The notes beneath the pieces are model-generated. The model searched no databases. It saw only the letters and a program-made list of their open reading frames with translations, and was not told the DNA's origin. Of a stretch of DNA of 64,000 nucleotides, positions 43,287 through 48,325 are shown in pieces. Origin of the DNA: Nitrospira sp. (GTDB taxonomy: Bacteria; Nitrospirota; Nitrospiria; Nitrospirales; Nitrospiraceae); the NCBI GenBank assembly GCA_029194535.1, contig JARFXR010000002.1:682001-746000 (forward strand), given 5' to 3'. Every line of letters begins with the position of its first letter. Position 1 is the first letter of the stretch. Both the position numbers and the translations under genes were made by a program.

Positions 43287-43315
43287 TTGACATCGGACAC
43301 CTTCATTTGTAACCA
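43287..43315 (+). promoter_or_regulatory. Promoter of the imuB-dnaE2 cassette
   Basis: A perfect TTGACA (43287-43292), 17-base spacer, then TAACCA (43310-43315) as a weak -10 that lies within the palindrome at 43309-43323. The rest of the 43032-43345 stretch holds no gene that I can support. Confidence 0.55.
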
Positions 43316-43323
43316 TTGGTTAC
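43309..43323. promoter_or_regulatory. 15-base palindromic operator candidate before imuB
   Basis: GTAACCATTGGTTAC is a perfect inverted repeat with 7-base arms around one base. It covers the -10 region and probable start point, where a repressor would block transcription. Damage-induced cassettes of this kind are usually controlled by LexA, so a LexA-type site is a fair hypothesis; the sequence differs from the classic E. coli, Bacillus and alphaproteobacterial boxes. Confidence 0.55.
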
Positions 43324-43345
43324 GTTTCAAGCCATGATTCAGGTT

Positions 43346-44542
43346 ATGGACCGTCATATTGTCTATCTGCAGATTCCTTGTTTCGGAATTGCGCTGGCTC
43401 AGGCAACCGAACCGGCACTACGGAACCGCCCTGTCGTGCTGGCCCCTATTCACACCCAACGCGCATTGGTCCTTGAAGCCTCTCGCGAAGCGATGCAAGA
43501 AGGAGTACGGCTCGGCATCCCAATCGAGTTGGCCCGGCGACTATGTCCAAGCCTACGACTCATTCCACCGGACTTGTCGTCGATACAGGCAGCTCATCGC
43601 GCCGTGCAACAGACCGTCCTGCCTTTCGCGCCGGTGTGGGAATCGATCAGGCCCGGAGCGCTGTTTCTGGATCTCACCGGAACGACCCGTTGCTTCGGCC
43701 CTCCCATCGATACGGTTTCCCGCCTCGGACGAGCATTGACCCGGCAACAAGGATTGCAGAGTGTCATCGGACTGGCAGGAAGCAAACTGGTTTCGCAACT
43801 GGCGGCGACCTCTCTCGCCGCACCGCCGCAAATACTCTCCATCCAAGCAGGCTCGGAGCAACCGTTTCTCGCCCCCTTGCCGGCCGCATGGCTGCCAGGT
43901 CTCTATCATCACACACAGCACATACGCCCATCGCAAATTTTGCAGCGGCTGGAAGATTTGAATCTGCGGACCATGGGAGACGTCTCGTCCGTACCGCTGA
44001 CTCATCTGCAATCGGCGTTCGGTGCCGCCGCCGCCGCGTGGTTGCATGATTGGGCATCGGGAGTCGATCCGTCTCCCGTCCGTTCTCTGACCGATCAACC
44101 GTCGATCGAGCGGTCGCTCAGGCTGGATCCCGAAGAGATCGACGACGGTCTGTTACTGGGACGCTTATACGAACTATTGGAGAGCCTCTGCACGATGCTT
44201 CGACAACAGGGACGAGTCTGCCGGCGCCTGCTGCTCATCGTTCGGCACAGTGATCAGCATCAACAGGTCACCCAGCAAAGGCTCCACCAGGCGACCTATT
44301 GGGAAGCCGATCTCAAACCGGTGCTCAGGCGTCTGTTCATTCGGTGCTTCCGACGCCGTGTCCGGCTGCAGCACGTGACGCTTCAGGTCGATCACTTGGA
44401 ATCTCCGGCCGAACAACTTGGACTGTTCGAGACACCGACGTCCTCTGCGCAACCGGCGCACCAGCGTCTGTCCCTGGCTGTGGATCGGATTCGTGCCAAG
44501 TTCGGCGCGCAGGCCGTTTCTTGGGGCGCGGTCCGACGATGA
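43346..44542 (+). CDS. imuB: ImuB-like, probably non-catalytic Y-family DNA polymerase
   Basis: 398 residues from the ATG at 43346 (43334 is possible). The start HIVYLQIPCFGIALAQATEP aligns with Y-family polymerases, but the catalytic Asp of motif I is replaced (YLQIPCFG). The place of the S-x-D-E motif reads ALFLDLTGTTRCFGPP. Loss of both acidic sites is the mark of ImuB, which acts as adaptor for the DnaE2 polymerase in mutagenic repair. QLGLFETP near the C terminus may be a clamp-binding motif. Stop and dnaE2 start overlap (ATGA). Confidence 0.82.
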   Translation: MDRHIVYLQIPCFGIALAQATEPALRNRPVVLAPIHTQRALVLEASREAMQEGVRLGIPIELARRLCPSLRLIPPDLSSIQAAHRAVQQTVLPFAPVWESIRPGALFLDLTGTTRCFGPPIDTVSRLGRALTRQQGLQSVIGLAGSKLVSQLAATSLAAPPQILSIQAGSEQPFLAPLPAAWLPGLYHHTQHIRPSQILQRLEDLNLRTMGDVSSVPLTHLQSAFGAAAAAWLHDWASGVDPSPVRSLTDQPSIERSLRLDPEEIDDGLLLGRLYELLESLCTMLRQQGRVCRRLLLIVRHSDQHQQVTQQRLHQATYWEADLKPVLRRLFIRCFRRRVRLQHVTLQVDHLESPAEQLGLFETPTSSAQPAHQRLSLAVDRIRAKFGAQAVSWGAVRR

Positions 44543-47500
44543 CGCCCTCTCCGTTCGTTCATCTGCATGTCCACTCGCATTACTCACCGATGCGCGGCGC
44601 GTCCTCTCTTGACGAGTTGTGTGTCGCGGCGCAACGGCAAGGCCTCTCCTGCCTGGCGTTGACCGATACCAACGGGCTCTACGGCGCCATCCGATTTATC
44701 GATCACGCTCGGCAGCGGGGACTGCGGCCCATTCTCGGCGCCGAACTGACGACCGCCGGCCACCGCGCCGTGCTGCTGGTCAAAACCCTCGATGGCTATG
44801 CCAATCTCTGTCGTCTGCTGTCTGAACGACACGATGATCAGTCGTTCGATTTTCTTTCCGCCGTCGTCCGCCATCGCCAAGGCTTGATCGTCTTCACCGA
44901 CGATGAAGCGGCCTTGTCCGCGTGGGCCGGGGAATCCACTCGCGATCTCTACGTGGAGTTGACGCCTGGCCCCGCCATGTACGAGACGTTGCAGTTCAGC
45001 CGCCGCACCGGGCTGCCGCCGGTCGCCACCAACCGGGTGTATTTTGCGGACCCGGAAGACTACGGCACGCATCGATTGCTGCGCGCGATTGCGCTTAATA
45101 CCACGCTGTCGCGATTGCCCGCCGAAGCTTGCTGCGGACCTTCTCAATGGCTGATGTCGCCCGCGCGGATGGCTTCGCATTTTCCCCATGCGCCAGACGC
45201 TCTGGACAATACGGCCCGAATTGCCGACGCCTGTCACAGCGAGTGGTGCGTTCGCGACGCCGTATTTTCCTCGTTTGGAGACCTCACGGATGACGAAGCA
45301 TTCACCGCTCTTCGCGCGCGCACCTATGCAGGGGCCTTAGAACGATACGGCACCCTCTCGCCACAGATCCGCGAGCGGATTGAAAGGGAACTCACCATCA
45401 TTCGACACAAACGCTTCGCTCATTACTTCTTGGTGGCGCAGGAAATCGTCGGAACGCGCCTGACGTGCGGCCGCGGCTCTGTGGCGGCTTCGATCGTCTC
45501 TTACTGCTTGAGAATCACGCACGTGGATCCTCTCAAACACAATTTGTTCTTCGAGCGGTTTTTAAATCCGGGGCGAACAGACCCGCCCGATATCGACATC
45601 GATTTCCCCTGGGATGAGCGTGAGAAGGTCCTCGAGCAGATCTTCGAGCAGTACGACGGTCGGGCGGCGATGGTCGCGAATCAGAACCATCTCGGTCTGC
45701 GCGCGGCCATCCGCGAAACCGCGAAGGTCTACGGCATGCCGGCCAAGGCCATATCGACCGTCTGCTCCCGCATCATGCGTGAACAGGCCTTCATCGACGC
45801 CAAAACCCGCGGACAATGGCTCCATGCGATCGTGACGTCCCTCCGCTTGAACGGCCCATGGCCTGAAATTTTAGAGCAGGCACTGCGGGTGCAGAACCAT
45901 TTTCGCCATCTCTCTCTTCATTGTGGAGGCGTGGTGATCACACCCGATGACGTCAGACGTTATGTGCCGGTAGAGCGAACGGTCAAAAGCCGGCCGGTTA
46001 TTCAATGGGAAAAGAACCAGGCGGAGGAAGCAGGCCTGGTCAAGATCGACATTCTGGGGAACCGTTCGCTCGCCGTCATCCGTGATGCGTTGAAGGCCGT
46101 CGCACGTCATACGGGCCGCAACATCGACTACGCGACATGGGACCCGTTACGCGACCAGGCCACACAAGATCTGATCAGACGCGGCGATACCATCGGGTGT
46201 TTCTACATCGAATCTCCGGCCACGAGACTCCTGTTGAAAAAGCTCTGGGTCGGCATGCCGCCCGACCGGCTGTCGACCGCCGATGTATTCGACTATCTCG
46301 TCATCGTCTCGTCGCTCGTCAGGCCCGCCGCCATCACTTTCGTCCATGACTTTGTCCGGCGTGCCCACGGACAATCCTACAAGCCGTTGCACCCTCTGAT
46401 CGAGCCCATTTTGGACGACACGTTCGGCATTATGGTGTACCAGGAAGATGTCACGAAGGTGGCGATGGCGCTGGCCGGCTTTTCCGTGGAAGACGCGGAT
46501 CAACTCCGCAAGATCATCAGCAAAAAACACAAGCAGCGGCAGCTTCGGGATTATTACCGGCAGTTTTGCCGCGGCGCGGCCAGCAACGGCGCATTGCAGG
46601 AAGTGATCGAGAAGGTGTGGGCGATGATCATGAGCTTCGCCGGCTATAGCTTTTGCAAGCCTCACTCAGCCAGCTATGCGCAGGTCTCATTCAAATCGGC
46701 CTATCTTCGCGCCCATTTTCCGGCCGAATTCATGGCGGCCGTCATCAGCAATCGCGGCGGATTCTATTCGACGGTCGCTTACCTCTCTGAAGCGCGTCGC
46801 ATGGGGCTGGCGGTCCTGCTTCCGGATGTGAACGCCAGCGAGTGGGCCTATCAGGGCGAAGGAGATCGGCTGCGCATGGGTCTGATGCAGGTTAACACGT
46901 TGTCGGAAGACTTTTGCGCCCGGATCGTCAACGAGCGGACGGCACGCGGCCCCTATCGCTCCTTCCAGGACTTTCTTCAGCGCATCCAACCCGACACAGA
47001 GCAAGCTCGAGCGCTCGTTCGCGCGGGCTGCTGTGATTCCATCGCCGGCGAACTCACCCGTCCGGCGCTGCTCTGGCGAGCCTACGCAGGCGAGGCCGAA
47101 TCCGATCCATTGCCGATACCAGACGAGTACGTTCCCAGGCAGAAGTTGACCCATGAGATCGAGTCGTTTGGTTTTCCGGCGAGCCGTCACCCCTTGACCC
47201 AGTATCGCAGCCAGATTGAGCGAGTGCGACCGATTCCGGCTTCACACATGGATCGGTTCATCGGACGACACATCACCATGGTGGGATGGCTCGTCACGGA
47301 AAAGCCCGTGGAAACCAAAGACGGTCTCGCGATGGAATTTCTGACCCTGGAGGATACCACCGCCCTCTATGATGCGACTCTGTTTCCCGACGTCTACCGA
47401 CGCTGCCGCCGACTCCTGTCGTCCGGGCGACCATACCGGCCATATGTGGTGCGCGGGGTGGTGGAAAACTCATTCGGTGCCGTGACCATCACAGTCTCGG

Positions 47501-47565
47501 ACCTCCGTTTCCTCGATCTCCTACCGGAGGACGATATATCTCCGTTCCTGCCTTCGGAGTCGTAA
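44539..47565 (+). CDS. dnaE2: Error-prone DNA polymerase DnaE2 (ImuC)
   Basis: 1008 residues from the ATG overlapping the imuB stop. An N-terminal PHP domain (VHLHVHSHYSPMRGASSLDE) is followed by ALTDTNGLYG, in which the usual metal-binding His (TDH) is Thr. The polymerase active site is PPDIDIDFPWDERE with GRGSVAASIVSYCL; SFCKPHSASYAQVSFKSAY and a C-terminal OB-fold segment complete the C-family layout. It carries out translesion synthesis with ImuB. No imuA is adjacent. Confidence 0.92.
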   Translation: MTPSPFVHLHVHSHYSPMRGASSLDELCVAAQRQGLSCLALTDTNGLYGAIRFIDHARQRGLRPILGAELTTAGHRAVLLVKTLDGYANLCRLLSERHDDQSFDFLSAVVRHRQGLIVFTDDEAALSAWAGESTRDLYVELTPGPAMYETLQFSRRTGLPPVATNRVYFADPEDYGTHRLLRAIALNTTLSRLPAEACCGPSQWLMSPARMASHFPHAPDALDNTARIADACHSEWCVRDAVFSSFGDLTDDEAFTALRARTYAGALERYGTLSPQIRERIERELTIIRHKRFAHYFLVAQEIVGTRLTCGRGSVAASIVSYCLRITHVDPLKHNLFFERFLNPGRTDPPDIDIDFPWDEREKVLEQIFEQYDGRAAMVANQNHLGLRAAIRETAKVYGMPAKAISTVCSRIMREQAFIDAKTRGQWLHAIVTSLRLNGPWPEILEQALRVQNHFRHLSLHCGGVVITPDDVRRYVPVERTVKSRPVIQWEKNQAEEAGLVKIDILGNRSLAVIRDALKAVARHTGRNIDYATWDPLRDQATQDLIRRGDTIGCFYIESPATRLLLKKLWVGMPPDRLSTADVFDYLVIVSSLVRPAAITFVHDFVRRAHGQSYKPLHPLIEPILDDTFGIMVYQEDVTKVAMALAGFSVEDADQLRKIISKKHKQRQLRDYYRQFCRGAASNGALQEVIEKVWAMIMSFAGYSFCKPHSASYAQVSFKSAYLRAHFPAEFMAAVISNRGGFYSTVAYLSEARRMGLAVLLPDVNASEWAYQGEGDRLRMGLMQVNTLSEDFCARIVNERTARGPYRSFQDFLQRIQPDTEQARALVRAGCCDSIAGELTRPALLWRAYAGEAESDPLPIPDEYVPRQKLTHEIESFGFPASRHPLTQYRSQIERVRPIPASHMDRFIGRHITMVGWLVTEKPVETKDGLAMEFLTLEDTTALYDATLFPDVYRRCRRLLSSGRPYRPYVVRGVVENSFGAVTITVSDLRFLDLLPEDDISPFLPSES

Positions 47566-47737: not shown

Positions 47738-48325
47738 CTACCTGCCGGTCTTGAACCAGTAAATCAACTCAAAGAGATGGAGATCGGCCCCGCGCGTGTG
47801 ATGCCCGTAGATCATCGCGTCAGAATAATGCTGAAAATGGTATCCGAGTCCAAGCGGCCCAAGGAAACGACTGGTCGCGCCGAAGGTCCAGACGAATTGA
47901 AACGGGCCTCCGAAATTCTGGATTCCGTACTTGTGATCGGCGAGCAACGCTCCGCCGAACCCCATGTCGAGGGACAATAGCCCGTCTTTCCTGCCGATCG
48001 CGAGATCCAGCGGCACCAACGTGAAAATTCCATTGGTTTCTTGGGCCGCGTGGAGTACTCCACCGGAGGTCAACAGTCTGGTCCCGGCCACCCAGCTCAT
48101 TCCGAGGTCCCACTCCCACGGCAGACGTACCGCGAGCACAAGGTCGGCTTGCTGAAAGTAATACTTCTGTTCCTCTTCTAGCGGCGAAATGCCGCTGAAG
48201 CCGCCTCTCACCGCGAGCGATTCAAGCCTGAACTCGCCGGCCCATCCGAATGAACCAGCTCCGACGATGCAGAAGCAGACGACACACACATACCGCAGCT
48301 TCCCGTGGCCACCGGCCGGACGCAC
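47738..48325 (-). CDS. PagL-like lipid A 3-O-deacylase family protein
   Basis: 195 residues from a GTG at 48325, preceded by AAGGGAG. A signal peptide ends near GSFGWA/GEF. The remaining strands have outer-membrane beta-barrel character, and LGYHFQHYSDAMIYGHHTRG near the C terminus keeps the His-x-Ser pair used by PagL-type acyloxyacyl hydrolases; a terminal aromatic YWF fits barrel insertion. It may remove an acyl chain from lipid A. Activity is inferred. Confidence 0.7.
   Translation of the reverse strand: MRPAGGHGKLRYVCVVCFCIVGAGSFGWAGEFRLESLAVRGGFSGISPLEEEQKYYFQQADLVLAVRLPWEWDLGMSWVAGTRLLTSGGVLHAAQETNGIFTLVPLDLAIGRKDGLLSLDMGFGGALLADHKYGIQNFGGPFQFVWTFGATSRFLGPLGLGYHFQHYSDAMIYGHHTRGADLHLFELIYWFKTGR

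What the first reader, a model, noticed from the sequence alone, without database searches (positions are those of the whole stretch)
43309..43323. Perfect palindrome GTAACCATTGGTTAC over the promoter of a mutagenesis cassette
The palindrome overlaps the -10 region behind a consensus TTGACA, the expected place for a repressor. It differs from the usual LexA boxes, so it may reveal the SOS box of this lineage or a different regulator.
Basis: partly seen in the sequence, partly recalled or inferred. Interest (0 to 1): 0.65.

Follow-up and report, generated by a model that had tools for sequence, protein, structure and literature searches.

The report
Operator of a LexA-like mutagenesis repressor
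The palindrome is most likely the DNA site where a phage-type repressor, which appears to stand in for the classic DNA-damage regulator LexA in these Nitrospira-type bacteria, switches off error-prone DNA-copying genes.

Summary
The palindrome GTAACCATTGGTTAC is real (43309-43323), 17 nt behind TTGACA and just before an inactive Y-family polymerase gene (imuB-like) that overlaps dnaE2. Alone it is unremarkable; its conservation is not. With up to 1 mismatch it occurs in 121 of 175 family genomes. Of 173 sites, 92 lie before a gene for a repressor with an XRE helix-turn-helix and a LexA-type self-cleaving S24 domain, 42 before imuB, and 31 before a new ~120-aa protein with a QLRLF-like (clamp-binding-like) C-terminus; 3 lie near no recognised gene. 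Strong canonical LexA hits occur in 6 of 175 genomes, none with the palindrome; recA has no site in 30 of 30 genomes. So 'repressor site' is supported, 'SOS box of recA and lexA' is not. Best reading: operator of a LexA substitute controlling itself and mutagenesis genes. Caveat: the repressor gene is missing from this assembly; its expected place falls at a gap between two contigs. Binding, cleavage and damage induction are inferred. The kind is known (HdiR, FddR, Bacteroidetes LexA); lineage, motif and third target seem new.

The parts
43287..43292 (+). TTGACA, -35 box
   Evidence: Read directly. TTGAC(A) at the same spacing recurs before most related imuB genes and before 31 of 31 small-protein genes.
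43309..43323 (.). Palindromic operator GTAACCATTGGTTAC, covering the -10 region
   Evidence: conserved in 35 of 35 related imuB loci and 121 of 175 family genomes.
43334..44542 (+). imuB-like inactive Y-family polymerase gene (402 aa; the start may be ATG 43346, where the homologues align)
   Evidence: PF00817 E 1.8e-24; Pol IV catalytic acids not conserved in the alignment.
44539..47565 (+). dnaE2-like error-prone DNA polymerase III alpha gene; its ATG overlaps the imuB stop (ATGA)
   Evidence: Frame; PF07733, PF17657, PF02811; TIGR00594 over its cut-off. Start codon chosen by eye.

Best explanation
The palindrome is the operator of a clade-specific repressor made of an XRE-type helix-turn-helix and a LexA-type S24 self-cleaving domain. 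Shown by sequence: the palindrome stands at the promoters of the repressor's own gene, of the imuB-dnaE2 cassette and of a small protein with a clamp-binding-like tail; it covers the -10 region behind TTGACA; its sequence changes along with repressor paralogues. Inferred: a repressor dimer binds it and blocks RNA polymerase; after DNA damage, RecA filaments trigger cleavage at the Ala-Gly bond, the repressor leaves, and the error-prone polymerase genes are expressed. The system stands in for LexA in this lineage but governs mutagenesis rather than recA.
For: Site before imuB in 35 of 35 loci. 173 sites in 121 genomes: 92 before the repressor gene, 42 before imuB, 31 before the small protein, 2 before another small gene, 3 near a methylase-like gene, 3 unexplained. 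In G018 and G016 the repressor gene and imuB lie in tandem behind one site. The repressor has HTH_3/HTH_31 plus S24, TIGR00498 over cut-off, and the LexA Ala-Gly, Ser and Lys aligned. Paralogues with a different recognition helix have a different palindrome in the same place. Canonical LexA is absent here and strong in only 6 of 175 family genomes, none of which has the palindrome.
Against: The repressor gene is absent from the own assembly, and 4 other genomes with an imuB site also lack a relative (36 of 41 have one). At the contig end next to modC a different gene of about 400 nt begins, so loss is possible. Co-variation is weak for the helix alone: partial Mantel r 0.18 (5 of 999 permutations), against 0.33 for the C-terminal domain. 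The -10 is poor and the promoter scan finds nothing. No binding, cleavage or expression data.
Confidence: 0.82

Rival explanations
1. Orphan operator: the site once served the repressor, but this strain has lost it, and the cassette is now unregulated by it.
For: No repressor relative in an assembly rated 99.88% complete; a different gene lies beside modC where G001 has the repressor.
Against: The gene's expected place coincides with the gap between contigs C1 and C3; the palindrome is still perfect.
Confidence: 0.25
2. Canonical LexA SOS box of the lineage, also before recA and other repair genes.
For: Mutagenesis cassettes with imuB and dnaE2 are often LexA-regulated (passage in PMC3919608).
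Against: No PF01726 here; the six family genomes with strong PF01726 lack the palindrome; no site before recA in 30 of 30.
Confidence: 0.02
3. A core-promoter element (for example for an alternative sigma factor), not an operator.
For: Fixed spacing behind TTGAC(A); the T before GTAAC is kept in all 35 imuB loci.
Against: Both arms are kept, restricted to a few gene families, and vary symmetrically with repressor paralogue.
Confidence: 0.05
4. Another S24 regulator of this genome (L024 or L025) binds the site.
For: They are the only S24 proteins found in the own genome; L025 matches HTH_31 over its cut-off.
Against: They read as another family; L024 aligns Arg where lambda CI has its catalytic Lys; none of the near copies listed lies at their positions.
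Confidence: 0.03

Closest known systems
Non-canonical LexA of the Bacteroidetes (PMC8565304; abstract, passages and sections 13, 14, 19 read)
   Same: CI/XRE-type N-terminal domain plus S24 domain with Ala-Gly and Ser-Lys; autoregulation; fixed palindrome; replaces LexA.
   Different: [quoted passage not shown] here GTAACC-N3-GGTTAC, no recA, another phylum. The C-terminal half here scores as LexA (TIGR00498).
HdiR of Streptococcaceae (read only through passages of PMC8565304)
   Same: LexA-like XRE-S24 repressor controlling itself and a Y-family polymerase or mutagenic cassette: functionally the nearest.
   Different: Different lineage and cassette (umuC); HdiR clusters with streptococcal phage repressors according to that paper.
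FddR of Francisella (PMC13148647; abstract, discussion and passages read)
   Same: Co-opted phage-type repressor, small autoregulated network without recA, palindromic operator.
   Different: GTG-N11-CAC; divergent units; experimentally shown; no imuB-dnaE2 cassette.
imuA-imuB-dnaE2 cassette and DnaE2-iPolY systems (PMC12926913; passages and section 20 read)
   Same: Inactive Y-family protein with DnaE2 in one operon.
   Different: No imuA in the window's operon; XRE-type regulator; a separate small clamp-motif protein under the same operator in many relatives.

Membership tests
Canonical LexA / SOS regulon | Winged-helix LexA DNA-binding domain (PF01726) in the genome | tested here: not met
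   0 of 1 in the own genome; 15 of 175 family genomes over the cut-off, 6 strong.
Canonical LexA / SOS regulon | Box before recA | tested here: not met
   0 of 30 genomes; best match 5 or more mismatches within 300 nt. Some published SOS networks lack recA, so this alone is not decisive.
Canonical LexA / SOS regulon | Box before the regulator's own gene and a mutagenesis cassette | tested here: met
   92 and 42 of 173 sites; in relatives, since the own repressor gene is not in the assembly.
Non-canonical (XRE/CI-type) LexA substitutes | XRE-type HTH plus S24 domain | tested here: met
   PF13560, PF01381 and PF00717 over cut-off in the relative from G014.
Non-canonical (XRE/CI-type) LexA substitutes | Ala-Gly cleavage site and Ser-Lys dyad | tested here: met
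   Aligned with LexA structures 7b5g and others.
Non-canonical (XRE/CI-type) LexA substitutes | Palindromic operator at its own promoter | tested here: met
   86 of 87 repressor genes by script, the last one mis-picked.
Non-canonical (XRE/CI-type) LexA substitutes | Specific binding, RecA-dependent cleavage, damage induction | not testable with these tools
   Needs bench work.
Non-canonical (XRE/CI-type) LexA substitutes | Present in the genome of the window | tested here: inconclusive
   No match, but the syntenic place falls at a contig gap.
imuA-imuB-dnaE2 cassette | Inactive Y-family protein next to dnaE2 | tested here: met
imuA-imuB-dnaE2 cassette | imuA in the operon | tested here: not met
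   imuB is the first gene; Yip1 upstream and PagL downstream lie on the other strand. The rest of the genome was not searched for imuA.

The most novel reading that the evidence does not exclude
The order Nitrospirales replaced LexA by a captured phage-type repressor that runs a mutagenesis-only damage response: itself, an imuA-less iPolY-DnaE2 mutasome, and a previously undescribed ~120-aa clamp-binding protein that acts as a further mutasome subunit or polymerase-switch factor. Cassette-borne paralogue repressors with shifted operators give insulated copies of the same response.
Probability: 0.4. Interest if true: 0.75.

Novelty: new variant of a known kind. Interest (0 to 1): 0.6.

Why it matters
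Nitrospira are major nitrite oxidisers and include comammox bacteria (recalled). Six paper searches for their LexA, SOS box, SOS response or translesion synthesis, or for LexA-like substitutes, listed no paper that by title or abstract start treats a damage regulator of this group. This would be a further independent case of a phage-type repressor taking over mutagenesis control. Its set of paralogue repressors with matching operators makes operator switching testable, and it points to an unannotated small protein likely to touch the sliding clamp.

Tried and rejected
Genome-wide regulon inside the own genome: rejected. All 22 strand-matches with up to 3 mismatches were read for a TTGACA (up to 1 mismatch) at promoter spacing; only the imuB site has it.

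Viral source: the exact 15-mer is in 103 viral stretches; of 80 of these loci searched, none encodes a repressor relative. A viral scan for the repressor gave one partial relative (48% over 50 residues); 84 phage records hold relatives, all below 60% identity. The phage source is unresolved.

Identity of the small protein: Pfam and NCBIfam gave nothing of note (best E 0.27 and 0.052), PHROGs none, best PDB E 0.64, plasmids none. That it could be a standalone ImuB-C-like subunit is only an idea from PMC12926913.

Mantel test: limited support for the recognition helix as such. Rows dropped: L102 (canonical LexA hit) and L164 (degenerate frame); one row with a wrongly picked palindrome. In one search the repressor list was typed from truncated outputs (137 rows); 47 of them have no site with up to 1 mismatch; those I read carry 2-3 mismatch variants (such as GTTACCAATGG..) or paralogue palindromes. 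The imuB list (44 rows) leaves out the more distant ImuB group: 41 have their own site, 2 follow a repressor gene behind one site, and the last (G104) has a site with 2 mismatches. The first recA script parsed only 15 of 30 loci and was replaced. Structure prediction was not used: its stated rule covers window proteins and loci of other tools than those that gave the repressor.

Full report
Observation. The palindrome is present as described, 17 nt behind TTGACA, with an imuB-like gene starting 10 nt (ATG 43334) or 22 nt (ATG 43346) later and dnaE2 overlapping its stop codon. A perfect 7-1-7 palindrome is not rare by itself: 11 in the window, about 4.5 in shuffles. In its own genome it is unique up to 1 mismatch, and there is no excess of near copies. 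No broad SOS regulon is visible from this genome alone.

Conservation. Four named loci were found with the imuB product: three titled Nitrospira and one titled uncultured Nitrosospira. All four carry the palindrome, one with 1 mismatch, just before imuB, at about 60% protein identity. In the family, 121 of 175 genomes have a copy with up to 1 mismatch.

What else carries it. Many copies were not at imuB. Reading them showed a protein of about 180 aa starting a few nt after the palindrome, with an XRE-type helix-turn-helix and an S24 domain. Its C-terminal half matches LexA structures with Ala-Gly, Ser and Lys in place, and TIGR00498 scores over its cut-off. It has relatives in 147 of 175 family genomes at E up to 0.001, a count that includes weaker, LexA-like hits. 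At E up to 1e-30 it is in 106 of 395 phylum genomes: 96 in the family, 9 elsewhere in the order and 1 weaker one in the class.

Census. Searches gave 173 unique sites. Matching coordinates against the listed gene hits put 90 before repressors and 41 before imuB. The remaining 42 were fetched and read: 31 precede a small protein of about 120 aa ending in a QLRLF-like motif, 2 are repressor starts at contig ends, 1 is an imuB remnant, 2 are another small gene (in L271 continued by a DUF72-like part; that name is recalled, not from a call), 3 lie near a methylase-like gene (name by eye), and 3 have nothing recognised. For the small protein, 31 of 31 have the site 0-5 nt before the start and TTGAC 16-18 nt upstream.

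Is it LexA? The LexA DNA-binding domain is absent from this genome and over the cut-off in 15 of 175 family genomes; the six strong ones (G164, G165, G169-G172) have no palindrome with up to 1 mismatch. Nine weaker hits were not examined. recA has no site in 30 of 30 genomes. uvr genes were not individually tested.

Repressor and operator travel together. Of 87 distinct repressor genes, the script found a palindrome directly upstream in 86; in the last it chose a neighbouring palindrome. Paralogues, some of which head their own imuB-dnaE2 cassettes (for example L157: repressor, imuB, dnaE2, DUF72-like), carry shifted palindromes: GTAACG, GTAACA, GTGAC or GTATC arms, in step with the variable residue of the recognition helix. 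These changes are few and related by descent; the partial Mantel test is weak for the helix alone (r 0.18, 5 of 999) and larger for the C-terminal domain (0.33).

The missing repressor. The own assembly has no relative. In G001, whose imuB product is 83% identical, the gene lies next to an ABC-transporter (mod-like) cluster. In G000 the matching flanks are the start of contig C3 and the end of contig C1, so the gene's place falls in the gap; but C3 shows about 400 nt of different sequence beside the transporter gene. I cannot tell a gap from a loss. Four other genomes with an imuB site also lack a relative (36 of 41 have one). The two S24 proteins the genome does encode look like another family; L024 has Arg at the lambda CI Lys position.

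Mechanism. Shown: sequence anatomy, conservation and co-variation. Inferred from knowledge of LexA, CI and HdiR: dimer binding over the -10, RecA-triggered cleavage, derepression of an iPolY-DnaE2 mutasome. The imuB product lacks the Pol IV catalytic acids in the alignment (the catalytic positions are recalled), as expected of ImuB-type scaffolds.

Known kinds. The closest are the Bacteroidetes non-canonical LexA (PMC8565304), HdiR (through that paper), and Francisella FddR (PMC13148647). Neither paper mentions Nitrospir- in its main text. PMC12926913 describes DnaE2 systems without ImuA and also has no Nitrospir- mention. Paper searches listed no title or abstract start on a Nitrospira damage regulator; the library lacks most subscription papers. 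I rate it a new variant of a known kind.

Noticed in passing
L243, L263, L257 and 28 other loci among L238-L279: Small ~120-aa protein without any family match, ending in a QLRLF-like motif (resembles a sliding-clamp-binding motif, recalled), always directly behind the same operator.
   Followed up: partly
L240, L262, L270: Near copies of the palindrome next to a methylase-like gene in three genomes, without a clear TTGACA.
   Followed up: no
L157 (5.1-10.8 kb); also L156, L160, L164: A second cassette type: repressor paralogue with its own palindrome, imuB, dnaE2 and a DUF72-like gene in a row in L157; a DUF72-like match also in L156, L160 and L164.
   Followed up: partly
L024 1108-1806, L025 1168-1815 (own genome): Two S24-domain proteins, one with Arg in place of the catalytic Lys of lambda CI; possibly regulators without self-cleavage.
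   Followed up: partly
window 47738-48325 (-): PagL-like lipid A deacylase gene (PF09411) just downstream of dnaE2, on the other strand.
   Followed up: no
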